A DNA stretch of 64,000 nt from Flavobacterium crocinum (GTDB lineage: Bacteria > Bacteroidota > Bacteroidia > Flavobacteriales > Flavobacteriaceae), in contig NZ_CP029255.1 in NCBI RefSeq assembly GCF_003122385.1, positions 4,464,001 through 4,528,000 of the forward strand, given 5' to 3'. A program made the translations under genes and the position numbers. The first letter of the stretch is position 1. Each line of letters opens with the position of its first letter. The notes under the pieces are model-generated. The model saw only the letters and a list, made by a program, of their open reading frames with translations. It was not told the origin of the DNA and did no database searches. Shown piece by piece: positions 43,694-63,576 of this stretch.

Positions 43694-43769
43694 GTATCCT
43701 GTACATACCTGACTTATGCAATAAAACTTTACTTTTTTGATCGTTTTTTAACATCATAGTACAGGATAC
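43694..43769. promoter_or_regulatory. 11-bp inverted operator-like repeat in the divergent PUL promoter
   Basis: GTATCCTGTAC at 43694-43704 and its exact complement GTACAGGATAC at 43759-43769 are separated by 54 nt in the 244-nt gap between the DUF4450-type operon (minus) and the CE12 gene (plus). A one-half copy recurs at the SGNH esterase promoter (61495-61504). The right half lies just upstream of a -7 box, where a -33 element would be, which suits an activator site. Confidence 0.65.
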
Positions 43770-43788
43770 TATATAAAATCATAACAAT

Positions 43789-43796
43789 TAGATTTG
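43789..43796 (+). promoter_or_regulatory. -7 promoter box for the CE12-GH2-CE12 operon
   Basis: TAGATTTG matches TAnnTTTG perfectly, begins 19 nt after the GTACAGGATAC half-site and lies about 30 nt before the TTG start codon. No -33 TTG is present, consistent with activator dependence. Confidence 0.6.
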
Positions 43797-43825
43797 AAAA
43801 TAAAATAAATTAAAATCTTAAAAAA

Positions 43826-45184
43826 TTGACTAAATTTTTCACATATTCCTATTTATTCTTGTTCTCTGTTTTGATCTCGTTTCCTTTGTTTGCGAGCAAT
43901 TCCACCAAAACTATCTTTCCGGCCAAAGCCGTTTTGGAAGACAGTCTAAAAAAGACAATACTTTTTCAGTTTGGCAACGATTTAAAAATCAAAAAAGGAA
44001 TTGCGGTAACAAAATCTTTGAAATACAAATCTGATCTAGGATATGGATTTGACTTTAATACCGAATCCAACCTAAAATTAAACTCCAATTCTTTTTCTAT
44101 TGAAAAGCCTGTCTACTTTTCTGTAAAACTTCCTGAAGGAAATTATCAAGTTGAAGTAGTTTTAGGAAGTCCTCAAAAAGACCTTAAAACAACCATAAAA
44201 GCAGAATCCCGCCGATTAATGGTTAATGAGTTTATTGTAACAAAAGGAAAATCGGCAGTACAAGTTTTTAATATAAATGTTAGAAATCCTAAAATTGATG
44301 ATAATTTGAATGTTACTCTTAAAGACCGCGAAAAAGACATCTTAGATTGGGATGATAAATTAACCCTTGAATTTCTAGGCGAAACAGCCGTTCAGAGTAT
44401 CAAAATCACAAAAAAAGACAATTTAACGGTTCTCTATCTAGCCGGAGATTCTACTGTTACCGACCAAGATGTAGAGCCTTGGGCATCGTGGGGACAATTT
44501 ATCACTGCTTATTTTAATGAAAATGTTGTTGTAGCAAATTATGCTTATTCGGGTTCTTCATTAAGTTCTTTTAAAGCCGGCAACCGCTTGAAAAAAATAC
44601 TTTCCCAAATCAAAAAAGGAGATTATCTTTTTGTGGAATTTGGTCATAATGACGAAAAAATTAAAGGCGCCGGCAATGGACCATGGGAATCGTATTCCAA
44701 TTTACTAACCGAATTTACTCAGGCAGCTAAAGATAAAGGCGCAACTCCAATTTTAGTTACCCCAACACAGCGCCGTTTTTTTAATGAAAATGGCACTCTA
44801 AAAGATACACATGGCGATTTTCCTCCAGCTATGCGTGCTGTAGCTCAAAAAAACAATACCGCTCTTATTGATATTACAAAAATGACAACTGAACTGTATG
44901 AAACATGGGGAGACGAAGTGTCTCAAAAAGCTTTTGTACAATATCCCGCCAACACATTTCCTGGTCAGGAAAAAGCACTAGACGACAACACACATTTTAA
45001 TAGTTTTGGAGCCAACGAAATTGCGCTTTGTGTAATTAAAGGAATCCGACAGCTTGATGTTCCGTTAAAAAAACAAATCAAAAAAGATATTCCAGATTAC
45101 GATCCGAAAAAACCTAACTATATTTCAAGCTGGACACTGCCAATAAGTGCTCGTTTTGAAATTTCTAAACCAGATGGAAACTAA
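43826..45184 (+). CDS. CE12 rhamnogalacturonan acetylesterase-like SGNH hydrolase (TTG start)
   Basis: This 452-residue secreted protein has a signal peptide (about 1-23, ending PLFAS). A galactose-binding-like domain (about 40-195) precedes the CE12 SGNH domain (about 203-425): nucleophile S209 in AGDSTV, the oxyanion glycine/asparagine motifs YSGSS and FGHND, and D387-H390 in DDNTHFNSFG. The only initiation codon that preserves the signal peptide is TTG. An in-frame stop lies five codons upstream and the first in-frame ATG is far inside. The enzyme should remove acetyl groups from galacturonic acid in RG-I so that lyases and GH28 can act. It opens a plus-strand operon with GH2 and a double CE12. 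Confidence 0.92.
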   Translation: MTKFFTYSYLFLFSVLISFPLFASNSTKTIFPAKAVLEDSLKKTILFQFGNDLKIKKGIAVTKSLKYKSDLGYGFDFNTESNLKLNSNSFSIEKPVYFSVKLPEGNYQVEVVLGSPQKDLKTTIKAESRRLMVNEFIVTKGKSAVQVFNINVRNPKIDDNLNVTLKDREKDILDWDDKLTLEFLGETAVQSIKITKKDNLTVLYLAGDSTVTDQDVEPWASWGQFITAYFNENVVVANYAYSGSSLSSFKAGNRLKKILSQIKKGDYLFVEFGHNDEKIKGAGNGPWESYSNLLTEFTQAAKDKGATPILVTPTQRRFFNENGTLKDTHGDFPPAMRAVAQKNNTALIDITKMTTELYETWGDEVSQKAFVQYPANTFPGQEKALDDNTHFNSFGANEIALCVIKGIRQLDVPLKKQIKKDIPDYDPKKPNYISSWTLPISARFEISKPDGN

Positions 45185-45186
45185 TA

Positions 45187-45241
45187 CCGATTATACAAAA
45201 TATATAGTCCAATAAATTGTACTATTATTTTGTTATATCGG
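45187..45241. promoter_or_regulatory. Imperfect inverted repeat between the CE12 and GH2 genes
   Basis: Arms at 45187-45202 and 45226-45241 (TATTTTGT...TCGG and complement, three mismatches) could form a hairpin just after the CE12 stop. There is no T tail, so it is not an obvious terminator and may be a processing or regulatory structure. CATTATTGGTAT at 45255-45266 also occurs at 61487-61498 in the esterase promoter. Confidence 0.4.
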
Positions 45242-45307
45242 CATTATACTAGAACATTATTGGTATAAATAATAAATGCAATTAGTATAACCAAAGAACC
45301 AACTTTT

Positions 45308-48175
45308 ATGCAACTAAAAAAACTTAAAATTCAGTGGATCACAGCACTGACCATTTTTATTTCGTTACACCTTACAGCGCAGCAGACTGACAAAATCTAT
45401 CTTTCGGGAAAAGATTTTGAACATCCTGTACAATGGGATTTTTACTGCACCGACGGTAATAACAGTAAAAAATGGTCAAAAATAAATGTCCCTTCTCAAT
45501 GGGAATTGGAAGGTTTTGGGGAATATACCTACGGTCGCTGGTATAAAGAACTAAACCAAAAAGAACCAAGCAAAGAAGAAGGTTTATACAAATATGAATT
45601 TGAAGTTCCAGCGTCTTACAAGGACAAGGAAGTGAAGATTGTTTTTGGCGGTGCAATGACTGATACTGAGGTAAAAGTAAACGGAAAGCTAGCAGGCGCT
45701 ATTCATCAAGGCGGTTTTTATGAGTTTAAATATGATATTTCATCGTTAGTAACTTATGGTGCTAAAAATATTCTGGAAGTCCATGTCTGGAAACACTCTG
45801 CCAACAAATCGGTTAATGCAGCCGAAAGAAGAGCCGACTGGTGGTTGTTTGGAGGTATTTATCGTCCGGTTTGGCTGGAAGTTTCTCCGAAAACAAATAT
45901 TCAGCATATAGCCGTAAATCCAAAAATGGATGGCAGCATCACAGTTGATTTGGATTTAAAAAATATTGCAAAAAATACCACTTTAGAAGCTTCGCTAAAA
46001 GGTTTAAACGGAGAAAGTCTGGAAGCTTTTTCTTTTCCGCTTAAAGCGAAAACTACTAAAGAAAGGATTTCGGCACAATGGAAAAACATCAAACCTTGGA
46101 ATCCGGAAAGTCCTAATTTGTACGAGTTGCAATTGGTTTTAAAACAAAACGGAAATAGTATTCATGAATACAATAAAAAAATAGGTTTCAGGACTCTGGA
46201 GTTTAAAAAACAGGACGGAATTTACGTAAACGGAACTAAAATTGTGATGAAAGGAATTAACCGCCATTCGTTTTGGCCGGAAGGAGGACGAAGCACCAGC
46301 AAAAGAATCAGCGAACTGGACGGAAAACTAATCAAAGACATGAACATGAATGCTGTCCGAGGGCATTATCCTCCAGACGAACACTTTCTGGAAGTTTGTG
46401 ATTCTCTTGGAATTTTTGTTTTAAATGAACTGGCAGGCTGGCAAAACTCATACGATACTGAAACGGGAACGAAATTGGTCGGCGAAATGGTAACACGTGA
46501 CGTCAATCATCCATCTGTAATTATTTGGGATAATGGTAACGAAGGCGGCTGGAATTATGAAGTCGATAAAGTTTTTGCTGAAAAAGATCCACAGAAACGA
46601 ATAGTGATTCATCCGTGGGCTGATTTTAACGGCTGGGATACGCATCATTATCCAACTTACTTAACCGGAATGCATCGTTTTAATGCGGGCGAAAATGTGT
46701 TTTTCCCAACCGAATTTATGCACGGAACTTATGATAACGGACACGGAGCAGCACTCGAAGATTTCTGGAACCGTTACAAAGAAAGTCCGCTTTTTGCTGG
46801 AGGTTTTATGTGGGCAATGCTCGACGAAGCTGTAAAACGTTCTGACTGGACTGGAGATGTAAAATTTGATTCGAAAGGTTCTTTGGCTGCCGATGGAATT
46901 TTAGGGCCTCATCGCGAAAAAGAAGGAAGTTATTATACTGTAAAAGAGGTTTGGGCACCAATCCAGTTTCTTCCGAAACAAGTGACTCCAAACTTTGACG
47001 GTTCTTTTCTGATTACAAATGATTATTTGTTCAGCAATCTAAATTCGTGCAGAATGGAATTTAAAGTGCTAAAATCTGATGCAGACGTTTTATACAGCAA
47101 TAAAAATGCACAAGCAATAAGTTCTGGTAAAATTCAAATTTCAGATATAAATCCGGGAGAAACACGTAAAATTCAGTTTGCGGTTCCAAACAATTTTGCT
47201 GAGGGAGATGTACTTTCCATTACCGCTTATGACCAGTTTGACAAAGAAATTTATACCTGGACATGGCCAATTCATAAAGCACTTTTTTATGCAAATAAGT
47301 TTTTAGCCGTTCAAAATACAAAAGCAAAAGCATCGGCAATTAAAACTGCAACCGAAGTTACTTTAAAAGGAAATAATGTTACCGTTGTTCTCAATGCTGC
47401 TAATGGAGAAATTACTTCTGTTAAAAACGGAATTTCAACTATTCCATTAACAAATGGCCCGCGTCCTATCGGAATGAAAGCGAAACTAAAAGACATTCAG
47501 GTTTCACAAGAGGGAGATAAAGCAGTTTGTTTGGTTTCGTATGTTGGTGGAATTTCAACTATAAAATGGACAATGGAAGCTGACGGAAGATTTAAAATGG
47601 AAATGATTGTACTGAAAAACGAAAAAGCACCAAGCGGTTTTGATGGTTTTGACGGAGCATTTTTTGAAGATAAAATCAATTCTTTCGGAATCACTTTCAG
47701 TTTTCCGGAAAAGGATGTCACGGGTATGAAATGGTTTGGAAGGGGGCCATACCGTGTTTGGAAAAACAGAATAAAAGGCACTACCTACGGAATTTGGGAG
47801 AAAGATTATAATACTACGATAACAGGAGAAAGTTTTGAAAATCTGGTATATCCTGAATTTAAGGGCTATCACGCCAATGTTATTGGAGCAAATTTAAAAG
47901 CAGGAACTTCTTCTTTTAAAGTTTTCAGCGAATCTGATAATCTATTTTTGAGATTATTTACTCCAGATTTGCCTAAAAATGGTTTCCCTGGCAGTTATCC
48001 GCAGCCGGCTTTTCCGGAAGGAGATATTTCGTTTATGTATGAAATTCCAGCCATGAGAGATTTTAAACCTCTTGAACAGCAAGGGCCTCAAAGTCAGCCT
48101 ACCAATATCCGCATCAAAAGCGGAGACGAAGGAATCAAAATGAACCTATGGTTTGATTTTAGAGATAAAATATAG
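45308..48175 (+). CDS. GH2 family glycosidase, probable beta-galactosidase
   Basis: This 955-residue protein has a signal peptide (1-25, ending LHLTAQ). The sugar-binding domain (about 35-195), immunoglobulin-like domain (about 197-300) and TIM barrel (about 303-560) are followed by C-terminal beta domains with an LacZ-like small domain (GMKWFGRGPYRVWKNR, about 800). Acid/base is E412 in WDNGNEGG and the likely nucleophile is E469 in FPTEFMHG. The sequence is clearly different from the GH2 at 29950, so the two probably cut different linkages. Beta-galactosidase is the default reading. It lies 123 nt after the CE12 gene. Confidence 0.91.
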   Translation: MQLKKLKIQWITALTIFISLHLTAQQTDKIYLSGKDFEHPVQWDFYCTDGNNSKKWSKINVPSQWELEGFGEYTYGRWYKELNQKEPSKEEGLYKYEFEVPASYKDKEVKIVFGGAMTDTEVKVNGKLAGAIHQGGFYEFKYDISSLVTYGAKNILEVHVWKHSANKSVNAAERRADWWLFGGIYRPVWLEVSPKTNIQHIAVNPKMDGSITVDLDLKNIAKNTTLEASLKGLNGESLEAFSFPLKAKTTKERISAQWKNIKPWNPESPNLYELQLVLKQNGNSIHEYNKKIGFRTLEFKKQDGIYVNGTKIVMKGINRHSFWPEGGRSTSKRISELDGKLIKDMNMNAVRGHYPPDEHFLEVCDSLGIFVLNELAGWQNSYDTETGTKLVGEMVTRDVNHPSVIIWDNGNEGGWNYEVDKVFAEKDPQKRIVIHPWADFNGWDTHHYPTYLTGMHRFNAGENVFFPTEFMHGTYDNGHGAALEDFWNRYKESPLFAGGFMWAMLDEAVKRSDWTGDVKFDSKGSLAADGILGPHREKEGSYYTVKEVWAPIQFLPKQVTPNFDGSFLITNDYLFSNLNSCRMEFKVLKSDADVLYSNKNAQAISSGKIQISDINPGETRKIQFAVPNNFAEGDVLSITAYDQFDKEIYTWTWPIHKALFYANKFLAVQNTKAKASAIKTATEVTLKGNNVTVVLNAANGEITSVKNGISTIPLTNGPRPIGMKAKLKDIQVSQEGDKAVCLVSYVGGISTIKWTMEADGRFKMEMIVLKNEKAPSGFDGFDGAFFEDKINSFGITFSFPEKDVTGMKWFGRGPYRVWKNRIKGTTYGIWEKDYNTTITGESFENLVYPEFKGYHANVIGANLKAGTSSFKVFSESDNLFLRLFTPDLPKNGFPGSYPQPAFPEGDISFMYEIPAMRDFKPLEQQGPQSQPTNIRIKSGDEGIKMNLWFDFRDKI

Positions 48176-48202
48176 TTTTAAGTTTAAATACTAAAATCTT
48201 TT

Positions 48203-48302
48203 AACCGCAAAGAACGCTAAGATTTTTATCTGTTGATATTGAAAGAAAATAAGTTCGCAAAGCTTTGCGCTCATCGCGTAAACCCTTGCGAACTTTGCGG
48301 TT
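48203..48302. repeat. CGCAAAG-type palindromic repeat
   Basis: AACCGCAAAG at the left end pairs with CTTTGCGGTT at the right end, with GTTCGCAAAGCTTTGCG in the middle. It belongs to the same family as the element at 39800-39939 and sits inside the CE12-GH2-CE12 operon. Confidence 0.75.
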
Positions 48303-48345
48303 AAATAAATATGCATAACATTATTCAAAATTTATAATTCAAAAC

Positions 48346-49854
48346 ATGAAATTATTTACAATACTTACTGCATTACTTTTGGCTGTATTATTTTTCAATT
48401 TTACATCAAAACAAGACAACAGACCTACTCTTTTTATGGTTGGAGATTCGACTGTAAAAAATGGAAAAGGAGATGGAGCCGGAGGTCTTTGGGGTTGGGG
48501 AGATTTCATTGGGCAATATCTCGATACGACAAAAATCAAGATTGAAAACCATGCTTTGGGAGGCACCAGCAGCCGTACATTTCAGGATAAAGGATTGTGG
48601 ACAGCAGTTTTAAATAAACTAAAAAAAGGAGATTATGTTCTGATTCAGTTTGGACACAACGACAATGGCCCTGTAAATGACAGTTTACGTGCAAGAGGTA
48701 CTATTAAAGGAATTGGTTCTGAAACCCAGGAAATCGACAATATCTTGACCAAAAAACACGAAATTGTACATACTTACGGCTGGTATATTCAAAAGGTAGT
48801 TCGTGAAGCGAAATCAAAAGGTGCAATTCCGATTATTTGCTCTCCAATTCCGCGCAATGACTGGCAGAATGGAAAAGTACCTCGAAATGACACATCATAC
48901 GGATTATGGGCCAAACAGATTGCGGAAAAGGAAAACGTAACTTTTATCAACCTAAACGAAAAAATGGCTCTTGAAATGGAAAAATTTGGCGAAACAAAAG
49001 TTACCGGAACTTATTTCTATAAAAAAGACCATACGCATACATCAGCAAAAGGAGCTGTACTTTCGGCTTCTGTTATTATTGATGAATTGAAAAACAGTAA
49101 AAATTCATTAAAAAAATACATTTTACACAATCCAAAAATTGTACTTCCTGCCAAGAAAAAAGTCTTTTTGATTGGCGATTCGACTATGGCAAACAATAAC
49201 AATAATCCTGATGCCGTTGGTTGGGGAGTTCCGTTTCCGAAATATTGCGATACGACCAGAATTGAAGTTATCAACAAAGCACGCGGTGGCAGAAGCACCA
49301 GAACTTTCGATTATGAAGGTTTATGGAATGAAGTAAAAAACCAGCTGGAACCCGGAAATTTCATTCTCATTCAGTTTGGACATAATGATGCTGGCGATAT
49401 TGACAAAGAAAAATTCAGAGGTTCCCTGAAAGGAAACGGCGAAGAAACGCAGGAAGTTACCCGTCCAGACGGAACTAAAGAGATTGTTCATACTTTTGGC
49501 TGGTATATGGAGAAATTCATTCGCGAAGCCAAAGAAAAAGGCGCAATTCCAATTGTCTTGAGCCAAACTCCACGTAATGAATGGCCAAATGATAAAGTAG
49601 AACGAAGAACTGATACTTATGGCAATTGGTCTAAAATTGCGGCAGAAAAACAAGATGTTCTTTACATCGATTTAAATGAAATTGTGGCGCAAAAATATGA
49701 GTTACTTGGAAAAGAAAAAGTAAAAGCTTTTTTCCCAAAAGACCACACCCATACTGGTTTGGAAGGTGCACAGTTAAATGCACTTACTGTGGCTGAAAGC
49801 ATTCAAAAATTAAAAAACTGCAATTTGAGGGATTATATTGAAATTCCTAAATAA
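48346..49854 (+). CDS. Tandem two-domain CE12 SGNH esterase
   Basis: This 502-residue protein has an N-terminal signal sequence (about 1-20). Two similar CE12 domains follow (about 26-250 and 269-495). Both keep the full catalytic set: S35 (GDSTVKNG) with D228 and H231 (KDHTHTS), and S279 (GDSTMANN) with D466 and H469 (KDHTHTG). GGTSSRTF/GGRSTRTF and FGHND are present in each. The family deacetylates RG-I galacturonic acid, and two intact sites may cover different acetyl positions or increase processivity. It closes the plus-strand operon, with a strong terminator after it. Confidence 0.93.
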   Translation: MKLFTILTALLLAVLFFNFTSKQDNRPTLFMVGDSTVKNGKGDGAGGLWGWGDFIGQYLDTTKIKIENHALGGTSSRTFQDKGLWTAVLNKLKKGDYVLIQFGHNDNGPVNDSLRARGTIKGIGSETQEIDNILTKKHEIVHTYGWYIQKVVREAKSKGAIPIICSPIPRNDWQNGKVPRNDTSYGLWAKQIAEKENVTFINLNEKMALEMEKFGETKVTGTYFYKKDHTHTSAKGAVLSASVIIDELKNSKNSLKKYILHNPKIVLPAKKKVFLIGDSTMANNNNNPDAVGWGVPFPKYCDTTRIEVINKARGGRSTRTFDYEGLWNEVKNQLEPGNFILIQFGHNDAGDIDKEKFRGSLKGNGEETQEVTRPDGTKEIVHTFGWYMEKFIREAKEKGAIPIVLSQTPRNEWPNDKVERRTDTYGNWSKIAAEKQDVLYIDLNEIVAQKYELLGKEKVKAFFPKDHTHTGLEGAQLNALTVAESIQKLKNCNLRDYIEIPK

Positions 49855-49898
49855 AGCAGTTAGGGATTTGAAGTCCTTAAGGTTGAAAACTTATTTTT

Positions 49899-49947
49899 AG
49901 CCACAAATTTCCACAAATTAATTTGTGGAATTTGTGGCTATTTTTTT
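49899..49947 (+). terminator. Long-stem terminator after the double CE12 gene
   Basis: A 20-bp stem (49899-49939, one bulged T) made from CCACAAATT repeats is followed by seven T on the plus strand. It separates this gene from the convergent GH115 gene. The stem is itself of the interspersed-repeat type. Confidence 0.8.
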
Positions 49948-50003
49948 AACTAAATGTAAAGACTAAACTTTTAGTTTGAACTAGTTTTGAAGCCCCTAAA
50001 TTT

Positions 50004-52445: not shown

Positions 52446-52455
52446 TTTTATTTTC

Positions 52456-52560
52456 TTTTGCCACAAAGGCACAATGGCACAAAGTTATTTTTTGGAAAAC
52501 TCATTATTTGGCTAAAGCCATTCTAGCATATTCAGTACCTCCAGCTAAAGCTGGAGGCAA
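52456..52560. repeat. REP-like hairpins between GH115 and GH28 genes
   Basis: Two perfect small hairpins, TGGCTAAAGCCA (52509-52520) and CCTCCAGCTAAAGCTGGAGG (52538-52557), are accompanied by a GGCACAA-type repeat near 52456-52485. A run of CTTAGnATCTTAG units lies near 52647-52675. They fill the gap inside the operon; no gene is seen. Confidence 0.75.
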
Positions 52561-52679
52561 TTCAATTTAATTTTAAAGGTTTAGGTTTAAATTTTGTAAA
52601 ATCAAACGTTATCTCTTTCACACTTTGGATTTCTTCAATTCAAAACCTTAGTATCTTAGAGGCTTAGCATCTTAGAACT

Positions 52680-54008
52680 TTAATTCACATGTTGCTTGTT
52701 CACATAAACATTCTTAAACGTCACACCATTTATCAAACTCTTGTCAATATTTGTTTTTACTGATTCTATATTTAGGTTTTCGAAAATGAAATTAGACAAG
52801 CGAACATTCGGGTCGTTTTCTACTCCATAAAAAGTATCGCATTTCAATTCGATGTTTTTCATAGTCACATTATCGCCGTAGGAAAGCGGAATATCTGGGC
52901 GTCCTTTCAAATCAAAGAATTGTTTCCAGGCAAAAACAGCTAATCCTGTTTTGGCTTCTCCTTTAACATCTTCAACTCTGATATATTCGTAACGTTGCGG
53001 TGTGTCAGGTCTCATTTTCAGCCACAATAATCTTGAAGCGCCGTCAATTTTACAATTGCGCATAATTATATTTCTATTGTGTATTGCCTCGCTTCCGTTG
53101 GTCAAAGCGGAATGGCAGAAACCGAAATTACAGTCTTCAATAATAATATTCTTGTTTGCTCCATTGTTTGGATCCTGGTCTGCATAAGGCCCTTTTCCAC
53201 CTTTAAGCGCAACAGCATCATCATTAACCGACATATAACAGCCTTTAACCAAAACATTGGTGCAGATATCGACATCAATAGCATCGGTACTTGGCGCTTT
53301 ATCTTTAACGTGAGGAGAAAAAATATACAAATCGAGCAGTTTAACATTATTGCATTTGTAAAAATGATTCGTCCAAAAACCGGAATTAATCAATTTTACA
53401 TCCTGAAACTGCACATTATTTGAATTCCACACAAATACTAATCTAGGTCTCGAAACTTCCAGATTGGTGCATTTTGGATTTTCTTTACGACGCGCCCAAA
53501 AAGCATCCCAGTATTTTTTCCCATTTCCGTTAATCGTTCCTTTTCCTGAAATTGAAAAATTATCTACTCCGTAAGCATTGACTACAGCCGGGAAATAATC
53601 TAAATTCTGTCCTTCCATTCTGGAAGCCATAATAGGAAAATCAGCTATATTATCAGAACCTTTCAAGACACCGCCTTCGCTAACATACAACTTAGTTTTA
53701 GGTTTAAAAAACAAAGCCCCGCTCAGGAAAACACCTTTTGGAATTACAATTACGCCACCACCGTTTGTGGCTGCTTTGTCAATTACCTTCTGAATGGCAG
53801 CTGTTTGTATTTTAGTGCTATCAGTTCCCACTCCATGGTCTGTAATTTTATATTGTTTACCTAGACTTTTAAGCTCCAGTTTGGTATAATCTTTAAACCA
53901 TGGCGTGATTTCACTTCCATCGGGAAATTTATCATTGCTGTATTTTTGTGAAGATGCATTTTGAACCATTCCTAAAATGCAAAAAACTAAAGTGAAAAAC
54001 TTTTTCAT
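52680..54008 (-). CDS. GH28 family glycosidase with variant active-site motifs
   Basis: This 442-residue protein has a signal peptide (1-20) and a beta-helix. Family motifs are recognisable but altered: APSTDAIDVD (238-247, in place of NTDG), VNDDAVALKGG (261-271, D263-D264 kept) and GFCHSALTNGSE (296-307, H299, in place of GHG). The final basic motif appears as LWLKMRPD. Such variants are common among rhamnogalacturonan hydrolases and exo-acting GH28 enzymes of Bacteroidota. It differs from the GH28 at 34116, so the two likely act on different RG-I fragments. It is 20 nt from the upstream GH43 gene's stop. Confidence 0.9.
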   Translation of the reverse strand: MKKFFTLVFCILGMVQNASSQKYSNDKFPDGSEITPWFKDYTKLELKSLGKQYKITDHGVGTDSTKIQTAAIQKVIDKAATNGGGVIVIPKGVFLSGALFFKPKTKLYVSEGGVLKGSDNIADFPIMASRMEGQNLDYFPAVVNAYGVDNFSISGKGTINGNGKKYWDAFWARRKENPKCTNLEVSRPRLVFVWNSNNVQFQDVKLINSGFWTNHFYKCNNVKLLDLYIFSPHVKDKAPSTDAIDVDICTNVLVKGCYMSVNDDAVALKGGKGPYADQDPNNGANKNIIIEDCNFGFCHSALTNGSEAIHNRNIIMRNCKIDGASRLLWLKMRPDTPQRYEYIRVEDVKGEAKTGLAVFAWKQFFDLKGRPDIPLSYGDNVTMKNIELKCDTFYGVENDPNVRLSNFIFENLNIESVKTNIDKSLINGVTFKNVYVNKQHVN

Positions 54009-54028
54009 TGTACCTTATTTTTGTTTTA

Positions 54029-55432
54029 TTATCTAATGGCAATCTGGGTTATAGAAATATAATTTCCTGTACTGCCGTAATTTGATTTTCTTTTGTCTGA
54101 CCAATTTGGCCTTTCTCCAGTTCCATAAACTGTCAACATATAAGTATCTTTTTTTAAGACTGGAGATTTATAAACTGTTGTTTCCATTGCACTTTTACTG
54201 TACATATCGACAATTGCGCTATTAACGTTTTTTCCTTTTTCATCTGTAATAACAACTTTAGCATAACCGTTTTCACTGCCAACCAAACTCGAAAAACCAA
54301 TCTGTTGTCCTTTAAATTGTACAGAAAATGAAGCATTTTTATCATCTGATTTGCTTTCTGACATCCTATTCTCTTTTACAACATGATTCCAATTGCCAGA
54401 ATATTTAATTTTTGAATCTGTGTTTTTTAAGATTTTGTCTGCATTTTTTGGTACAGACACAATTCCAGTCTGTAAATCAATCTGCCAGCTTTCCTGATAC
54501 TCTGGAATTTTTAAAGAAGTTCCGGAAATAGTAAGCGGCTGCCAGACATAAGTTGCCGAAGAGGCTTGTTTTGGAAAAGACCAACGATCTCCCATAAATA
54601 TATAACTTGTTGTTTTTGTTCCCTTAACAGGCAAAACAAATGTCGACTGGGAATTCCATGTCAATGTTCCTTCGGGAGCAATTAAACCACGCGATTCCCA
54701 TGGACCTTTAATTGAATTTGAAGTGTAATAATAATTGTCATTTCGTTCCCAGCTGGTTAGATGCGAGCCAATAAAATAATACAACTTATCTTTTTTAAGC
54801 ATGGTTGGCGATTCAAAACCTGTTGTCATACTTTCGTTTACTTTTTCTGTAACCGACTTATAATCATCACTCAATTTGTAGATTTCGCCTCCATGAATTA
54901 GGATATATCCTAAACCGTCATCGTCTTGAAAAGTTCCCATATCCCATTTTTTGATCGGTTTTCCTTCAAACAAAAGTGGTCCTTTAAATGTATACGGTCC
55001 TTCGATATTTTTTGAAACTGCGTAACCTACAAACTGATCTTTATAGGTTAAAGAATCGGCATGCATATACATTACATACTCAGCTGTTTTCGGGCATTTC
55101 ATCACTTTTACTCTTTCTCCGACACGATTGGGACCTAATTTTCCTTCTTTTTGCACCGGCAAAGCCACGCTTTCAAACTTCCAATTATAAAGATATCTGG
55201 ACGAATAACAATTAAATCCTGCAAATGCATTACTGTCATCAGAATGAGCTTCTCCAAAAAGATAAAACGTCTCTTTTTCTTTTACAATACAAGCTCCGTG
55301 TGCACTAACAATATTCCCATTTTGATCAAACCATGGTATTCCAGAATAAACAGCATCCATTCCACCCGATTTCTGAGCAGAAGAGATCATGATATTAGTA
55401 AAGAAAACAATCCAGAATACTGCTTTTTTCAT
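54029..55432 (-). CDS. GH43 subfamily-24-like exo-beta-1,3-galactanase
   Basis: This 467-residue protein has a signal peptide (1-19). The propeller (about 25-330) contains E106 (VGERVKV), E207 (GFESPTM) and Q262 (NSQSTFV). These match in spacing the E102, E208 and Q263 reported for a fungal exo-beta-1,3-galactanase in which glutamine serves as the base. The usual GH43 aspartate base is absent. A C-terminal carbohydrate-binding-like domain (about 340-467) follows. Predicted action is release of galactose from beta-1,3-galactan of arabinogalactan. With the GH115 enzyme two genes away, an arabinogalactan side activity of this operon is a reasonable inference. Confidence 0.86.
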   Translation of the reverse strand: MKKAVFWIVFFTNIMISSAQKSGGMDAVYSGIPWFDQNGNIVSAHGACIVKEKETFYLFGEAHSDDSNAFAGFNCYSSRYLYNWKFESVALPVQKEGKLGPNRVGERVKVMKCPKTAEYVMYMHADSLTYKDQFVGYAVSKNIEGPYTFKGPLLFEGKPIKKWDMGTFQDDDGLGYILIHGGEIYKLSDDYKSVTEKVNESMTTGFESPTMLKKDKLYYFIGSHLTSWERNDNYYYTSNSIKGPWESRGLIAPEGTLTWNSQSTFVLPVKGTKTTSYIFMGDRWSFPKQASSATYVWQPLTISGTSLKIPEYQESWQIDLQTGIVSVPKNADKILKNTDSKIKYSGNWNHVVKENRMSESKSDDKNASFSVQFKGQQIGFSSLVGSENGYAKVVITDEKGKNVNSAIVDMYSKSAMETTVYKSPVLKKDTYMLTVYGTGERPNWSDKRKSNYGSTGNYISITQIAIR

Positions 55433-55475
55433 TGTTTATATTTTTGTTTTAATTGGATTTGGGATTTTAATAAAG

Positions 55476-56816
55476 CTATTTTCTTTTCAACCAGTCTTTT
55501 GGCACATTTACAATGCAGATATTCAAAGTTCTGTTATCCTCAGAAAGCATTGCCGACTGAATTTGAATTTTAGTTCCATCCCTGTTAAAAGTCGGGTGAA
55601 CATGATCTGCTGCGGTTTGTTTATGTCCTGTCGTCAGCATTATCATTTCATTGGTTTTACGATCAATCAGATATAAACTTCTGGAGAAATCATCTCCAAC
55701 AGCCCATCTTCCGTCAGCAGAACCGTGTACGTGCCATAATCCGCTGCCGCTTTTGGTCTGTCCGGCAATAATCATTTCGCGGGTTCTTAAATTTACAATC
55801 GCTAGACCCGTTGGTTTTTCTCGAGTTCCCGAATTTCCCCAATTGCTTTCTTGCCCTGGATTCTCGGGATTTCTGATTTCCGAACTTTCAGTAACTTCAA
55901 CTGGAGTTTCTTTTTGAATATCAATTTTTCGGTGTCCCATAATGGCCATTGCCACCTCATCTTTAGAAATTACCGCTTCATGTGTTACCCATTCATAATC
56001 TGATTCAGGATACAATGGTCTTAGGCCCGTTCCATCTGCCATAACCGTCCAAGTGCGCTGAGGCGATTTACCGCCCGTTTCCCAGCAGAAAACAAGTTCT
56101 CCCGGATTCCAGATATTCGATTGAATATGCCCTACCTGAAACGGCACCGAAACTACATGTTTCAACTCTCCAGTTTTTATATTCATACTGCCAATACCTC
56201 CAGGGCCTGCTCCCATATTTCTAGGGCCATAGTTTTTTTCAATTTTAACATTCGGATCTAAATGTTTTGCAGCTTCTTCTCTCCCAATTCTAAAATACAC
56301 ACGATCTTCGTTGGCATCCAAAGCCATATCTCCTGATGCTCCCATTTCTGAAGGTGTTATCGCGCAAATACGTTCATATGCTTCAACAGCTTTCATTTTT
56401 CCAACTTGGCTATCCTTAAAAACGTTTTCCAGATTTACTTCTATAATCTGCATCGTATTTTCTTCGCCTTTGCGCATATAATACAATTTCATCGATTTTT
56501 GCGCCATACACAAAGTACCGCTGTAACCGCCTTCTGTAACCTGGACCATCACGCCTGATTTTTCATTTACCGCAACTGCATCGCCATTGGCTCTTTTGGT
56601 TCTAAAAATAAGCCACTCGCCGTCTGCTGTCCATTGTGGATGAGTCGGATAGGTTTTGGAATCACCTGCCGATTTCGTAGTTAAAAAAATCAAATCAACA
56701 CCCGTAACAGGATCTTTAATTATCTTTTTCTCAGATGGAAAACGTCTTCCTATCTGACCAAAAAATGTCGCCGAAAAAAAAAGTAACAATATAATTGAGA
56801 TTGATTTGAATTTCAT
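55476..56816 (-). CDS. PL22-like oligogalacturonate lyase, secreted
   Basis: This 446-residue protein is a seven-bladed propeller of the oligogalacturonate lyase type. Typical segments are HPQWTADGEWLIFRT (59-73), FQVGHIQSN (226-234, H230), CWETGGKSPQRTW (244-256), WVTHEAV (276-282, H279), HVHGSADGRWAVGDD and DHVHPTFNRDG. These supply the histidines that bind manganese and act in catalysis in PL22. Unlike the cytoplasmic enzymes of Enterobacteria it has a signal peptide (1-20, ending FFGQ), so it acts in the envelope. An acidic insertion (about 298-340) is also present. Substrate could be short galacturonides or RG-I oligosaccharides. Confidence 0.9.
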   Translation of the reverse strand: MKFKSISIILLLFFSATFFGQIGRRFPSEKKIIKDPVTGVDLIFLTTKSAGDSKTYPTHPQWTADGEWLIFRTKRANGDAVAVNEKSGVMVQVTEGGYSGTLCMAQKSMKLYYMRKGEENTMQIIEVNLENVFKDSQVGKMKAVEAYERICAITPSEMGASGDMALDANEDRVYFRIGREEAAKHLDPNVKIEKNYGPRNMGAGPGGIGSMNIKTGELKHVVSVPFQVGHIQSNIWNPGELVFCWETGGKSPQRTWTVMADGTGLRPLYPESDYEWVTHEAVISKDEVAMAIMGHRKIDIQKETPVEVTESSEIRNPENPGQESNWGNSGTREKPTGLAIVNLRTREMIIAGQTKSGSGLWHVHGSADGRWAVGDDFSRSLYLIDRKTNEMIMLTTGHKQTAADHVHPTFNRDGTKIQIQSAMLSEDNRTLNICIVNVPKDWLKRK

Positions 56817-56931
56817 CCGTTTGCTTTTGATTAACTTTCTACTAATTGAAACTATAGTTATGTCTTAAAAATCAGAACGATAAACTGTGAAACACATATC
56901 GCATAACCCTTAACCCATAACTCGAAACCTA

Positions 56932-58266
56932 TTATCCTTTAATTTTCAACTGAATAGAACTGTCATTCATTTCAAATTGATTATTTTTTAAAAGTGTGAT
57001 TATTTCAGCTCCAGCCAATAAAACCGGTCCGTAACCGTGGGCTGCAAATAAGTTTATAGGACGGTAATAGTAAAAAGCAGGGTCAAATGCCATTCCGGTT
57101 CCTACGCAGGTTCCTTCTACCTGACCCTTTTCATTTACTTTGGAAGCTACTGCATTCCAAGCCAATAAAACTGCAGGTGCATAAGCCAATTTATCCACAT
57201 ATCCTCGGTTGATTGCTCTTGCAATAGAATAGGTATAAATGGCAGTTGCCGAAGTTTCAAGATAAGAATCGTTTCGATCCAGCAATTGATGCCAAAAACC
57301 TGTTCCGTCTTGATATTGCATAAGCCCAGCGATATGTTTTTGAAGCTGCGCCAGAACCTGAGGATATCCCGGATGATTTTTTGGGAGCACTTCCAATAAT
57401 TCTACCATAGTCATCACTGCCCAACCATTTGCTCTTGCCCAATGAAACTCGGGGTGTGTCTGCATTGACTCTACCCAGCCGTGCATATAAATTCCTTTTT
57501 GACTGTTGAACATTCTTTCTGAAAACTGGTTGACTTGTTTTACAGCATCATCAAAATATTTTTTATCTCCAGTGTAATTCCCCATTTGTGCTAAAGCCGG
57601 AACACTCATGAACATATCATCCAGCCAAAGTGTATTATTTTGCGGTCTGTTTCTCGCTAGTGTTCCATCTTTTAAACGATATTCTTTTTCGCTTATATAT
57701 TTAATAAAGTTATTGATAACAGGATCAACATTGGCATTTAATCCTCCTTTTTTAGCTTTGATGAAAGCAGCACAAAGTGCTCCGGCATCGTCTAAAGCAT
57801 GTGGTTTTAAAACAGTACGAATTGGTGAATCTTGTATATTTTCGCTTTTAAAATTTTCAGCAAGATCCGCTATTAATTTAATTCTCTTATTGGCATAATC
57901 TGCATATTCTTTTTTTCCTGTTGCTTCAGTCGCCAAAAGCATTCCGGCATAAGTAACACCCCATTCGTAACTTGTAAGCCTGAAAGAGCCTGGAGAAAAA
58001 ACAAGTTTTCCTTTTGCTTTTTTGAAATCTTTTACTTCTGAATTATCACTTGCATTGAGAACTTTTGAAGCGGTATTTTCTTCAAGGAAATTATATACCC
58101 GATTTAAAACGGCCTCAATATTATTTTTTTCCGGAACAACATAAGGCGTTACATAATCCGGCTGCATGGCATGCAAAGGTGTGGTTACATCATTTGTCTG
58201 TGCATTCGCGGAAGCAAAAATTCCAAATGTGGCCAAAGCTATAATTTTTACTGGTGAATAGTTCAT
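56932..58266 (-). CDS. GH105 unsaturated rhamnogalacturonyl hydrolase
   Basis: This 444-residue protein has a signal peptide (1-22, ending ANAQ) and an (alpha/alpha)6 barrel. Family features include HALDDAGALC (156-165), the catalytic region NTLWLDDMFMSVP (211-223, D216-D217) and FHWARANGWAV (274-284). GH105 enzymes hydrate and release the unsaturated galacturonic acid left at the non-reducing end by PL11 or PL22 cleavage. It therefore works directly downstream of both lyases in this window. The gaps to its neighbours are 107 and 115 nt, all in the same direction. Confidence 0.94.
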   Translation of the reverse strand: MNYSPVKIIALATFGIFASANAQTNDVTTPLHAMQPDYVTPYVVPEKNNIEAVLNRVYNFLEENTASKVLNASDNSEVKDFKKAKGKLVFSPGSFRLTSYEWGVTYAGMLLATEATGKKEYADYANKRIKLIADLAENFKSENIQDSPIRTVLKPHALDDAGALCAAFIKAKKGGLNANVDPVINNFIKYISEKEYRLKDGTLARNRPQNNTLWLDDMFMSVPALAQMGNYTGDKKYFDDAVKQVNQFSERMFNSQKGIYMHGWVESMQTHPEFHWARANGWAVMTMVELLEVLPKNHPGYPQVLAQLQKHIAGLMQYQDGTGFWHQLLDRNDSYLETSATAIYTYSIARAINRGYVDKLAYAPAVLLAWNAVASKVNEKGQVEGTCVGTGMAFDPAFYYYRPINLFAAHGYGPVLLAGAEIITLLKNNQFEMNDSSIQLKIKG

Positions 58267-58373
58267 AGTTAGTATTTTTGGTTAATAAGATTCTATTTAG
58301 CACTGCAATAACAATTTTGGTTTCCCAAAGTGGTCTATTGTCATTGAAAGCGAAGAAGTTATAAAATTATTTT

Positions 58374-58703
58374 TTAATCTAAATGAAAAACTTCTTTTAA
58401 CGAAATGGCAATCGGAGAATTATCGGGATTGGTATCCATTATATCCGCCATAAAAGCCCACCATTTTTTTACTAATGGATGGTTCGGCAGATGCTTTTCA
58501 TCAAAATTGGGACTAATTTTTTGAACTGCAAATAAAATCAGTGTTTCTTCATCTAAAAAAATACTGTAATCCTGTATGCCGGTTTCAGACAATAAAGCCT
58601 GTAACTCTGGCCAGATTTCGTCATGTCTTTTTTTATATTCTGCTTCAAAACCCGGTTTTAATTTCATTTTGAAAGCATTCCGAATGGTACTTTTATTTTC
58701 CAT
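58374..58703 (-). CDS. rhaM: L-rhamnose mutarotase
   Basis: This 109-residue cytoplasmic protein matches the small dimeric RhaM fold: FKMKLKPGFEAEYKKRHDEIWPEL (11-34, catalytic H27) and the conserved end WWAFMADIMDTNPDNSP (81-97). It interconverts rhamnose anomers before isomerisation. Its presence shows that rhamnose freed from the RG-I backbone is a carbon source. It is the only clearly intracellular enzyme of this operon. It is 3 nt from the upstream GH43 gene, so the two are likely co-translated. Confidence 0.94.
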   Translation of the reverse strand: MENKSTIRNAFKMKLKPGFEAEYKKRHDEIWPELQALLSETGIQDYSIFLDEETLILFAVQKISPNFDEKHLPNHPLVKKWWAFMADIMDTNPDNSPIAISLKEVFHLD

Positions 58704-58706
58704 TTT

Positions 58707-59726
58707 CTAATGTTTTAAATTGATTTGAACTGATTTGTCACGATTACAGCTGATTTCTCCGTTATGATATTCAAGTTCTGCAACCTGTATAGAGCTTCTT
58801 TTGGTTTCATAGTTGTCAACTCCTTTGTTTTCTGGAGTCCTCCCTGGATGAGTGAAATAAAAAACATACGCTTTTCCATCATTTACCACAACATCTGCAT
58901 GTCCTCCAATTACTTTATCATCCTGACCAGTTCCGGGAAGCTGCAGTATATTTTTTTCCTGCCGATTCCAGTTTAGAAAATCTTCTGAGGAATACACATT
59001 CAGTCCTCTCCATGAATCAGAAATCATCCAGTTTTTCCCTTTCCAAACAAAAACTTTTGGGCCTTCGCCACGGTCTTTTATAATTTTTGTAACGCTGTCT
59101 TTCCAATTATACAAATCATTACTGTCTGCATAATAAATTGATTTTCCATCATTTTCATTATTGTAAAACATTCTCCAAGTTCCATTTGGCAATCTAAAAA
59201 CTGAAGCATCAATACATCGGTCAGAAGCCAATTTTAGTTCCGATTCAAACTTCCAATCCATCAAATTGCTGCTGGTAAGATGAATTATCGAACGCGGATG
59301 ATACCAGTCATTAAATATTCCTGGAACAATCGTTAAATACATATGGTATTTATTTTTGTATTCAATTACATCTGGAGCCCAGTACGTTATATCTTTAAGT
59401 TTATAATTGATGTTACAAGTGTCTTTATAGGTCCACTTTGCACCGTCTTTTGAAACTGCAATTCCTATTTTAGTTCCATGCACCCATGTTATTCCTTTGG
59501 CTGTAGCATCATTTGCTCTTCTGTTGGTATAAAACATAAACCACAGCTTTTCTTTTTTATTCCAGATAATCGTAGGATCGGCAGCACCGTCATAAACAGG
59601 ATCACGATACAATGGCTTTGGAGCTGTATGTTTTTGATCTTCTTTATTTTCTTTTTGAGCTATCATTGTCAAAGTGAACAACACAGTTGCAAGATTTAGA
59701 AAAAGATTTTTTAGTTTATTTTTCAT
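58707..59726 (-). CDS. GH43-like glycosidase
   Basis: This 339-residue protein has a signal peptide (about 1-24). It is a single propeller domain with a GH43-type acid triad: D50 (DGAADPTI), D173 (RCIDASVF) and E221 (GEGPKVF). WAPDVIEYKNKYHMYLT also fits clan GH-F. It has no accessory domain and does not contain the glutamine-base pattern of the other two small GH43 enzymes here. GH117-like proteins share this triad, so family GH43 is likely but not certain. Substrate is unknown; proximity to rhaM and GH105 suggests an RG-I oligosaccharide. Confidence 0.82.
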   Translation of the reverse strand: MKNKLKNLFLNLATVLFTLTMIAQKENKEDQKHTAPKPLYRDPVYDGAADPTIIWNKKEKLWFMFYTNRRANDATAKGITWVHGTKIGIAVSKDGAKWTYKDTCNINYKLKDITYWAPDVIEYKNKYHMYLTIVPGIFNDWYHPRSIIHLTSSNLMDWKFESELKLASDRCIDASVFRLPNGTWRMFYNNENDGKSIYYADSNDLYNWKDSVTKIIKDRGEGPKVFVWKGKNWMISDSWRGLNVYSSEDFLNWNRQEKNILQLPGTGQDDKVIGGHADVVVNDGKAYVFYFTHPGRTPENKGVDNYETKRSSIQVAELEYHNGEISCNRDKSVQINLKH

Positions 59727-59752
59727 TTGGTTTTGTTATTTTTTGCTCAATT

Positions 59753-59882
59753 TTGTCATTCCGAGGAACGAGGAATCACACTCGGGATTCGATAAAGATT
59801 GGCGACATACTGTGTCGAGTTTCTAGTGTGATTTGCTCCGCCTATTCGCTATCGCTCGAGTCTCGTTCCTCGAAATGACAAA
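59753..59882. repeat. Interspersed palindrome carrying an inserted module
   Basis: The left arm (59753-59781) is the GTCATTCCGAGGAACGAGG unit seen at 37485. The right arm is split into GTGTGATT and CTCGTTCCTCG..ATGACAA by a 28-nt module at 59834-59861 (core TTCGCTATCGCTCGAG). A close relative of that module interrupts another palindrome at 10659-10685. It lies in the 189-nt gap between the esterase and GH43 genes. Confidence 0.8.
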
Positions 59883-59915
59883 CTAGACTTACTTTTAAAC
59901 AAACTCTACAAACAT

Positions 59916-61439
59916 TTAATTTTTAATATTTACCCAATCATCGGTCCTAAAAGGCGATGCTGGAAGATTTTCTGTATTAAATAAATTTGGATTCGGAACG
60001 GCTTTCCACGCAAAACGCACCGCTTCCGGATTTTTTACTTGTGTTGAAGAAACGATAATTGTTTTACCCTCAATTTTTGCATCGGCAGGATAAAAAACCT
60101 GGTCACTTCCTGCAATTTCAAATTCTTTTAAATCAGCTGTCTTTTTAAATCCGTTTTGTACTTCATCAAAAAACAATTGAATCTTCTTCTTTTTGATTTT
60201 CATATGATTATAAGCTGGTCCAGAATACACTAGATTCTTTTCGTTATACGTTTTAGATCTTGCCAGTAAAGCCAAACGATAACCAACGGTTTGTTTGTCT
60301 ATAGGATGAATATTGTTTTCATCTCCGACATCTGTAGTCACAACCATTCCTGTATTTGGAACCGATTTTGAAACCAATAATTGTGCTTCTCTTATATCAG
60401 GATTCTGACCTTTGTGTGGCGTGATCTGAACAAAATAAAATGGAAAATCTCCCTGATTCCAATCGCTTCTCCAGTTTTTTATCATAGCTGGAAAAAGACT
60501 TCTGTACAAAAATGCTTTTTCGGCATTACTTTCTCCCTGATACCAGATTACCCCTTTTATAGTATAATTGATTAAAGGATGCAACATCGCATTGTACAAG
60601 ACATAAGAAGTTTTATTCTCTTCCTTTTTCGGTTTTTTAAGCTCCGTTTTGGTTAAATCGTTATTGTTTGAAATTCTTTCGGCTTTTAAATCTGCGTAAT
60701 ATTTTTCCAGTTTCTCCTGAAATAATTTTTCGTTTTTGGCATCATTTTCTAATATTCCCAAAAAATCTGGATTTTCTTCCAAAACCTTTTGCGAAGTCCA
60801 TGCTTCTGCTTTTGTTCCTCCCCATGAAGAAGAAATTAATCCTATTGGCACTTTCAAATTTTGGTACAAATCGCGTCCAAAAAAATAAGCCACGGCAGAA
60901 AATGTCTTGATTGACAGAGGCGAACATTCTTTCCAGTTTGCGCTGACATCATCTAAAGGCTTTTGAGAGGCTTTGGTCGGAATGGTAAATAATCTGATTG
61001 ATGGAAAGTCGGCGCTTTGAATTTCTTCTTCATAATTTTTGACGCCGGTTTTCCAAGTGCCGTCTTCCTTTCCAACAGGAAAATACATATTTGATTGTCC
61101 GGAACAAACCCAGACTTCTCCAATCAGTATGTTTTTAAGAATGATTTTATTTGAAGCTTCAATTGTTATTTCATATGAATTTTCGCTTCCTTGAGGCGTT
61201 TCAACAACAGTTTTCCATGTTCCGTCAGTATTAGTTGTAATTTCTAATGCATTCTGCTGCCATCCTAACTTAAGATTTATTTTTTCATTTGGAGAAGCCC
61301 ATCCCCATAAATTCACTTTTGAATTTTGCTGCAAAACCATATTATCCCCTACCAAAGCTGGTAGTTTTACTTGGGCTGTCAAAGTTAATCCCAGTCCAAA
61401 AAAAATAAATAATACAAAAATTTTTACCGAATAAATCAT
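59916..61439 (-). CDS. Sialate O-acetylesterase-like SGNH esterase
   Basis: This 507-residue protein has a signal peptide (1-22, ending LTAQ) and a beta-sandwich (about 24-105) before the SASA-type SGNH domain. The nucleophile is S116 in CSGQSNM. SSWGGTKAEAWTS and GVIWYQGESNA form the oxyanion hole, and DVGDENNIHP supplies the Asp-His pair. The family name reflects sialic acid esterases, but relatives in plant polysaccharide loci deacetylate pectin or xylan. With no sialic acid genes here, a pectin or side-chain acetylesterase is the better reading. It has its own promoter, separated from susD by a terminator. Confidence 0.9.
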   Translation of the reverse strand: MIYSVKIFVLFIFFGLGLTLTAQVKLPALVGDNMVLQQNSKVNLWGWASPNEKINLKLGWQQNALEITTNTDGTWKTVVETPQGSENSYEITIEASNKIILKNILIGEVWVCSGQSNMYFPVGKEDGTWKTGVKNYEEEIQSADFPSIRLFTIPTKASQKPLDDVSANWKECSPLSIKTFSAVAYFFGRDLYQNLKVPIGLISSSWGGTKAEAWTSQKVLEENPDFLGILENDAKNEKLFQEKLEKYYADLKAERISNNNDLTKTELKKPKKEENKTSYVLYNAMLHPLINYTIKGVIWYQGESNAEKAFLYRSLFPAMIKNWRSDWNQGDFPFYFVQITPHKGQNPDIREAQLLVSKSVPNTGMVVTTDVGDENNIHPIDKQTVGYRLALLARSKTYNEKNLVYSGPAYNHMKIKKKKIQLFFDEVQNGFKKTADLKEFEIAGSDQVFYPADAKIEGKTIIVSSTQVKNPEAVRFAWKAVPNPNLFNTENLPASPFRTDDWVNIKN

Positions 61440-61467
61440 TAGTTATACAATTTTAATCCTAAAATTT

Positions 61468-61504
61468 TAAAGATATGACACTAAATCATTATTGGTATCC
61501 TGTA
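61468..61504 (-). promoter_or_regulatory. Operator-promoter module of the esterase-GH43-rhaM operon
   Basis: On the minus strand TACAGGATAC (61504-61495) is followed after exactly 19 nt by TATCTTTA (61475-61468), a one-mismatch TAnnTTTG box, 29 nt before the esterase start. The same half-site and spacing occur at 43759-43796 in front of the CE12 operon. Confidence 0.6.
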
Positions 61505-63554: not shown

Positions 63555-63576
63555 AATGTTGTCTTTTTGAATTATT

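What the first reader, a model, noticed from the sequence alone, without database searches (positions are those of the whole stretch)
43759..61504. Shared operator-promoter module at two separate PUL promoters
GTACAGGATAC at 43759-43769 is followed after exactly 19 nt by the -7 box TAGATTTG (plus strand, CE12 operon). On the minus strand, TACAGGATAC at 61504-61495 is followed after exactly 19 nt by TATCTTTA (esterase-GH43-rhaM operon). A third, inverted copy at 43694-43704 faces the DUF4450-PL11 operon but has only a poor -7 match. The half-site replaces the -33 element at a fixed distance, as expected for a class II activator site. A weaker GATAC-N19-TAAATTAT occurs at 23133 near the GH146 operon. 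This predicts one regulator joining several operons, possibly encoded outside the window.
Basis: partly seen in the sequence, partly recalled or inferred. Interest (0 to 1): 0.72.

Follow-up and report, generated by a model that had tools for sequence, protein, structure and literature searches.

The report
Tandem-repeat switch for rhamnose-pectin genes
The two matching promoter sites are part of a paired DNA landing site, repeated at about a dozen promoters of this Flavobacterium, that appears to let one sugar-sensing protein switch on rhamnose use and pectin breakdown together.

Summary
The full site is a tandem direct repeat, CAGGATRS-N2-CAGGATRS (10-bp period), ending 19 nt before a TAnnTTTG -7 box. 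In the own genome the repeat alone (at most 2 mismatches) matches 15 times: 11 intergenic, each with a -7-like box at N19 and beside pectin or L-rhamnose genes (one by a weak match only), and 4 inside ORFs. Genus-wide, 351 repeat+box matches face 6 for the reversed pattern. Best candidate regulator: a GntR winged helix on a LacI/PBP1-like sugar domain, one copy 22.7 kb beyond the window, another divergent from rhaT. It co-occurs with the sites (37 both, 2 and 3 discordant, 157 neither), and paralogues beside galactose and xylose genes carry 10-bp repeats with other half-sites. Most likely it binds as a side-by-side dimer in place of the -33 element and activates when rhamnose arrives. Binding, activation and inducer are inferred, not shown. 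The 23133 site is rejected.

The parts
43752..43769 (+). Operator of the CE12/GDSL operon: CATCATAG-TA-CAGGATAC (degenerate first half, perfect second half)
   Evidence: 16 of 21 other CE12 loci keep TACAGGATAC upstream with at most 1 mismatch (misses L051, L055, L056, L057, L059)
43789..43796 (+). -7 box TAGATTTG exactly 19 nt after the operator
43694..43711 (-). Operator facing DUF4450: CAGGTATG-TA-CAGGATAC
   Evidence: the half-site copy is kept within 1 mismatch in 10 of the 13 other loci with a DUF4450 neighbour
43667..43674 (-). Poor -7 candidate GAAATTGC at N19. G005 and G050 have better boxes at the same distance, but the gene there is not a DUF4450 relative
61495..61512 (-). Operator of the SASA esterase-GH43-rhaM genes: CAGGGCAC-TA-CAGGATAC
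61468..61475 (-). -7 box TATCTTTA at N19
43826..45184 (+). GDSL/CE12-type esterase, first gene of the right-hand operon
45308..48175 (+). Glycoside hydrolase family 2 protein, next gene
39964..43581 (-). DUF4450/DUF608 protein, first gene of the left-hand operon
35543..37393 (-). Rhamnogalacturonan lyase family 11 (PL11), downstream of DUF4450
59916..61439 (-). SASA-type esterase, first gene after the 61495 operator
58707..59726 (-). GH43-type protein
58374..58703 (-). L-rhamnose mutarotase rhaM
61611..63590 (-). SusD-like protein; the SusC-like ORF before it runs across the window end and has its own operator at genome 4530771-4530788 (window frame 66771-66788)

Best explanation
The module is the operator-promoter of a genome-wide L-rhamnose/rhamnogalacturonan regulon. 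Operator: two 8-bp direct repeats CAGGATRS one helical turn (10 bp) apart, ending 19 nt before a TAnnTTTG -7 box. The likely binder is a one-component GntR-type regulator with a LacI/PBP1-like sugar domain (own copies: genome 4550738-4551790, after the GH106 gene cluster, 22.7 kb beyond the window; and 4896591-4897661, divergent from rhaT-RhaD/ADH-rhamnose isomerase-kinase). Rhamnose or an early catabolite would load the regulator, which binds as a side-by-side dimer where the -33 element would be and recruits RNA polymerase (class II activation). Shown by sequence: operator, fixed spacing, regulon content, conservation, co-occurrence, paralogue half-site change, domain make-up. Inferred: binding, activation, inducer.
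For: Repeat-only matrix hits: 102 in 1.24 Mb of fetched loci, 101 intergenic, 96 of 101 with TAnnTTTG (at most 1 mismatch) at N=19, at most 4 at any other N; Markov control 1 hit. Loci chosen only by the regulator protein: 25 hits of 18 bits or more in 16 of 20 loci outside the genus, 25 of 25 with the box at N19; 79 of 80 named loci have a repeat, 85 of 85 hits with a box of at most 2 mismatches at N19 but only 9 with at most 1. Own genome, repeat only: 11 of 15 matches with at most 2 mismatches intergenic, all 11 with a -7-like box (0-2 mismatches) at N19, the other 4 in ORFs. Co-occurrence in 199 genus genomes: 37 both, 2 regulator only, 3 sites only, 157 neither. In the rhaT-regulator intergenic alignment the repeat is one of two conserved islands. 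Own targets: three susCD pairs, GH106, CE12, SASA esterase, rhaT operon, a gene with a weak PelZ match, BNR beside GH78, a further SusCD beside a pectinesterase, GH141+rhaM. Paralogue beside galactose genes: CTGGTAGG-TA-CTGGTAKG, mostly at N19; paralogue heading likely xylose genes: CAGAACGG-AA-CAGAACGG just downstream of a -7-like box. The presumed recognition helices differ with the half-site: SRDTxEKxY, SRDTVLx(A)(Y/F), SRDTVFKAY. Model (mean pLDDT 91): LacI-like fold behind an N-terminal GntR domain.
Against: GntR dimers usually bind inverted repeats (PMC5320631, passages); a one-turn direct repeat is unexpected for them. The PUL copy is absent from the fetched PUL regions of G138 and G111; their best copies lie elsewhere. 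G180 (68% complete) and G056 have the protein but 0 and 1 sites; G033, G061 and G179 have 2-3 sites with only distant paralogues. Four loci of family f5 (about 57% identical regulators) show no operator with box; one has a weak repeat-only hit. Of 20 class-level homologue loci, 16 have no hit of 18 bits. The regulator's promoter beside rhaT carries a second conserved island with a palindrome, which could be its operator instead. One out-of-PUL site in G149 stands divergent from an HTCS-like gene (L157). TTG at the -33 place is only weakly enriched in ordinary promoters of these loci (18 at N20 against about 10), so 'replaces -33' rests mainly on geometry.
Confidence: 0.76

Rival explanations
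1. Same operator and same GntR/PBP1 protein, but acting as a repressor: it covers the promoter until rhamnose releases it.
For: Sugar-responsive GntR and LacI-type regulators are often repressors (general knowledge); the xylose-type paralogue's repeat lies just downstream of its -7-like box, a repressor-like place.
Against: A repressor does not need one spacing, yet 96 of 101 intergenic repeats have the box at exactly N=19, and the repeat letters occupy the place of the -33 element.
Confidence: 0.18
2. Another, unidentified regulator binds the repeats and merely travels with rhamnose/pectin genes; the GntR protein uses the palindrome near its own promoter.
For: OmpR/PhoB-type proteins are known to bind 10-11-bp direct repeats (recalled, not tested); a second conserved island lies near the GntR promoter. 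Only three candidate regulators were compared across the PUL regions, and the other ORFs of the relatives' regions were not all annotated.
Against: The sites recur beside this protein's gene outside the genus, and the galactose and xylose-type paralogues of this same protein carry their own 10-bp repeats with other half-sites.
Confidence: 0.12
3. A hybrid two-component system (HTCS), the usual PUL regulator, binds the site.
For: HTCS genes lie at genome 4434777-4438973, beside the CE12 gene in G138, and divergent from an out-of-PUL site in G149 (L157: 27% identical to the own HTCS).
Against: Published HTCS motifs are direct repeats averaging 21 bp apart, not 10 (PMC3878776, passages); the own HTCS is about 70 kb from the CE12 promoter and its best match in the other PUL regions fetched is 29% (G138; these regions may stop short of an orthologue); G149 has the sites without a Y_Y_Y-type sensor in its PUL.
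Confidence: 0.04
4. Chance resemblance of AT-rich promoters.
For: Short motif; five window matches with one mismatch besides the three exact copies.
Against: Controls and the protein-chosen loci.
Confidence: 0.01

Closest known systems
AraR-type GntR regulators (Bacillus subtilis AraR; PDB 4egy)
   Same: GntR winged helix on a LacI/PBP1-like sugar domain; regulates sugar genes (AraR's own C-terminal domain recalled)
   Different: AraR is a repressor on palindromes (palindrome recalled); here one-turn direct repeats at a fixed activator-like place, in a regulon spanning PULs
MocR subfamily of GntR regulators (GabR, PdxR)
   Same: GntR DNA-binding domain; many operators contain direct repeats (PMC5320631, passages)
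   Different: No aminotransferase domain here; their characterised direct repeats lie two or three turns apart
Bacteroides HTCS_Rgu-1/-2 and RhaR (PMC3878776, passages)
   Same: Control rhamnogalacturonan PULs and the rhamnose operon
   Different: There the PULs have membrane HTCS with about 21-bp repeats and rhamnose has a separate AraC-type RhaR on one operon; here one cytoplasmic regulator appears to join both
Bacteroides FucR and ManR (GntR family; PMC3878776, passages)
   Same: GntR-family monosaccharide regulators in the phylum; ManR and the NrtR-type AraR also reach SusCD genes
   Different: Their motif structure was not readable here (figures and supplements not held), so it could be similar

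Membership tests
GntR family | N-terminal GntR winged-helix domain | tested here: met
   PF00392 in both own copies; PDB sequence matches to GntR proteins
GntR family, AraR type | C-terminal LacI/PBP1-like effector domain | tested here: met
   PF13377 in the PUL copy; fold match of the model of the second copy, which has no Pfam C-terminal hit
GntR family | Inverted-repeat operator | tested here: not met
   Conserved operator is a direct repeat of period 10; binding itself untested
MocR subfamily | Aminotransferase-like domain | tested here: not met
   About 350 aa; NCBIfam MocR matches cover the DNA-binding part only; LacI-like fold
HTCS regulons | Direct repeats about 21 bp apart | tested here: not met
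   Period 10; no column of strong information further upstream
HTCS regulons | HTCS gene with the PUL | tested here: inconclusive
   Own HTCS about 70 kb from the CE12 promoter, a non-orthologous one beside CE12 in G138, none in the G149 PUL
SusR-like regulons | Repeats 67 or 77 bp apart | tested here: not met
   Period 10
Class II activation | Site overlaps the -33/-35 place at fixed phase to the core promoter | tested here: met
   N=19 in 96 of 101
Class II activation | Regulator raises transcription | not testable with these tools
   Needs a mutant or in vitro transcription
Bacteroidota primary-sigma promoter | TAnnTTTG -7 box with start about 7 nt on | tested here: inconclusive
   Boxes present; starts not mapped

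The most novel reading that the evidence does not exclude
Flavobacteriales carry a family of cytoplasmic GntR/PBP1 sugar regulators that bind one-turn tandem direct repeats as side-by-side dimers. Each member reads its own half-site (rhamnose CAGGATRS, galactose CTGGTAKG, xylose CAGAACGG), and the place of the repeat relative to the -7 box sets activation or repression. Through the rhamnose members, whole rhamnogalacturonan loci are gated by a monosaccharide rather than by membrane sensors of oligosaccharides.
Probability: 0.5. Interest if true: 0.75.

Novelty: new variant of a known kind. Interest (0 to 1): 0.63.

Why it matters
It gives the pectin loci of this Flavobacterium a candidate regulator, a readable operator, a list of targets and a simple rule (repeat, 19 nt, box) that finds regulon members in related genera. 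It suggests that polysaccharide and monosaccharide control are fused here, unlike the split HTCS/RhaR scheme of Bacteroides, and that GntR proteins can dock on one-turn direct repeats. The paralogues offer a natural specificity swap to test.

Tried and rejected
The 23133 site: no tandem repeat. An early idea that the CE12 site is a palindrome (ATAGTA-CAGGA-TACTAT): true for that promoter in some close relatives, but not shared by the others, so the direct repeat is the common unit. HTCS as regulator: spacing does not fit and gene conservation gives little support. The AraC gene at 560-1414: no match in the other PUL regions fetched. TTG at -33 in ordinary promoters: only weakly enriched. An argument that the DUF4450 site gains a good -7 box in G005 and G050 was dropped: the neighbour there is not a DUF4450 relative.

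Counting caveats: the matrix was trained on 37 sites that had to have a -7 box, and part of the loci were fetched because of the N19 pattern; searches are the tests whose loci or matches were chosen without the box. In one search, 15 of the 55 matches with 3 mismatches were read, all in ORFs; of the 40 not read there, two are intergenic sites seen elsewhere (DUF4450, and 4770738). One search uses handles and counts typed by hand. Of 30 regulator loci, 22 had a site of 20 bits or more; the 8 misses are of the PUL-copy type. In one search one of 20 loci (L380) returned no regulator ORF in my ORF list. The match lists are capped; the genome counts used here come from their full tables or, from its best-first list.
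Full report
OBSERVATION. The two modules and the inverted copy are at the stated coordinates with the stated 19-nt spacing. TACAGGATAC occurs 7 times in the 5.88 Mb genome; the three window copies are intergenic and the other four read as coding from their flanks. Reading 100 kb around the window showed that each copy is the second unit of a tandem direct repeat of period 10: CAGGATAC-CA-CAGGATAC at genome 4541629-4541612, CAGGATAC-AA-CAGGATAC at 4536512-4536495, CAGGACAC-CA-CAGGACAC at 4530788-4530771, CAGGACGC-TA-CAGGATAG at 4541869-4541886. In the window the first halves are CATCATAG, CAGGTATG and CAGGGCAC.

ANATOMY. A matrix from 37 intergenic sites of six genomes (G000, G015, G091, G111, G138, G149) gives A-CAGGATRS-N-A-CAGGATAS-N19-TAnnTTT(G/A), with no strong column where an HTCS partner box would be (both halves and the box were selection criteria, so their strength is partly built in). 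Searching with the repeat columns alone gave 102 hits in 1.24 Mb, 101 intergenic, 96 of 101 with the box at N=19. In loci fetched only because they encode the regulator, outside the genus, 25 of 25 hits of 18 bits or more had the box at N=19, in 16 of 20 loci. In the 80 named loci 79 have a repeat; there the rhaT box is the weaker TTATTTTA at N19, so 85 of 85 hits have a box with at most 2 mismatches at N19 but only 9 with at most 1.

REGULON. Own genome, repeat alone with at most 2 mismatches: 15 matches; 11 intergenic with a -7-like box (0-2 mismatches) at N19; 4 inside ORFs with 3-4 mismatches. The reversed pattern gives 14 matches against 70 at up to 3 mismatches. Targets: three SusCD systems, the GH106 gene cluster, the CE12 operon, SASA esterase-GH43-rhaM, rhaT-RhaD/ADH-rhamnose isomerase-kinase, a T9SS-sorted protein with a weak PelZ match (below its cut-off), a BNR protein beside GH78, a fourth SusCD beside a pectinesterase, a GH141+rhaM protein. 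The DUF4450-PL11 site is the twelfth (3 mismatches, poor box); 13 of 21 other CE12 loci have a DUF4450 neighbour, and 10 of those 13 keep the half-site copy within 1 mismatch. Across 199 genus genomes the full pattern (at most 3 mismatches) matched in 55, 351 matches against 6 of the reversed pattern.

REGULATOR. The only regulator among the genes I annotated between the window's AraC gene (560-1414) and genome 4551790 is a GntR/Peripla_BP_3 protein following the GH106 gene cluster (short ORFs and one open-ended ORF were not scanned whole). A 44% paralogue stands divergent from the L-rhamnose operon with one repeat facing rhaT. In the loci L184-L203, 20 of 20 have a repeat; 19 are the rhaT-type site by sequence and one (L201) is a CE12-type site. 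In G008 and G184 the PUL-type copy has its own repeat upstream. Presence of a close copy and of two or more sites agree in 194 of 199 genomes. Other genera of the family, and one homologue 62% identical in another family, show the repeat before a gene of RhaD/ADH size, about 700 aa (domains checked in L276 and L277 only). Misses: four family-f5 loci, and 16 of 20 class-level homologue loci. One site in G149 outside the PUL stands divergent from an HTCS-like gene.

FAMILY TEST. If this protein class reads one-turn repeats, its paralogues should carry other repeats. Beside Leloir galactose genes (epimerase, galactokinase, GalT, transporter; domains checked in L239 only) the paralogue has CTGGTAGG-TA-CTGGTAKG or a close variant in 9 of the 21 mixed loci examined; by eye the box lies at N19 in 6 of the 9, else 17, 18 or 20. 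Several loci of related paralogues (L258, L260, L261, L263, L274) showed no such repeat. Heading likely xylose genes (FGGY kinase and, below its cut-off, a xylose-isomerase-like barrel; L266 only), 4 of 4 loci have CAGAACGG-type repeats just after a -7-like box and before ATG, a repressor-like place. The presumed recognition helices change with the half-site. This is the strongest reason to assign the repeats to this protein class.

MECHANISM. Likely: L-rhamnose (or rhamnulose, or its phosphate) binds the LacI-like domain; two winged helices sit side by side on one face of DNA over the -33 place and contact RNA polymerase at the -7 box. Fixed N19 favours activation over repression. GntR proteins are said to bind inverted repeats as a rule, MocR members often direct repeats two or three turns apart (PMC5320631, passages). 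The arrangement here, one turn, would need a head-to-tail or flexibly linked dimer. Not shown: binding, activation, inducer.

KNOWN OR NEW. In Bacteroides, HTCS control rhamnogalacturonan loci through repeats averaging 21 bp and an AraC-type RhaR controls one rhamnose operon (PMC3878776, passages). No paper on this regulator or such an operator was seen in the open-licence library by the searches (listings; passages of five papers: PMC3878776, PMC12125979, PMC5698469, PMC8056085, PMC5320631). The motif letters themselves were not search terms; subscription papers, RegPrecise logos and supplements were not seen, so the FucR/ManR motifs remain an open comparison. The organism is a Flavobacterium near F. 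quisquiliarum, F. phragmitis and F. chilense by this one protein; the own record may be left out of that list.

Noticed in passing
L239:8861-9913, genome about 1227861-1228913: Paralogous GntR-type regulator divergent from a galactose (Leloir) operon with a CTGGTAGG-TA-CTGGTATG tandem repeat 19 nt before TATTTTTG.
   Followed up: partly
L266:4735-5742 (genome 2374735-2375742) and L267-L269: Paralogue heading likely xylose genes; a tandem CAGAACGG-type repeat lies between a -7-like box and the start codon, a repressor-like position.
   Followed up: partly
L234:10251-10591 and aligned loci: A second conserved island beside the regulator's own promoter, ACGAAATCGATTGCTAAAATAG, with the imperfect palindrome GAAATCGATTGC; in L196 it reads GCAAACGTTTGC.
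   Followed up: no
L147-L149 (G025): A region of a genome without a close CE12 orthologue carries about a dozen divergent sites, many CAGGACAG-like, suggesting a drifted specificity; its genes were not annotated.
   Followed up: no
43756-43773: The CE12 site alone forms a palindrome ATAGTA-CAGGA-TACTAT, also seen in close relatives; G005, G050 and G073 show CAGT-GCAGGAT-ACTG instead.
   Followed up: partly
L068:10777-14973 (genome 4434777-4438973): An HTCS beside a susC-like gene about 25 kb before the window; best match in the other PUL regions fetched is 29%.
   Followed up: partly
G138:C1:819115-823467: A different HTCS stands upstream of the CE12 gene, where DUF4450 lies in the own genome.
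   Followed up: no
L157:8611-9035 (G149): One operator outside the PUL lies between a fasciclin-like/1109-aa gene pair and a divergent HTCS-like gene.
   Followed up: no
L154, L155, L156, L157, L159, L160: The same operator precedes a fasciclin-domain lipoprotein followed by a TonB-dependent receptor (domains checked in L154 only), an unusual pairing whose substrate is unknown.
   Followed up: partly
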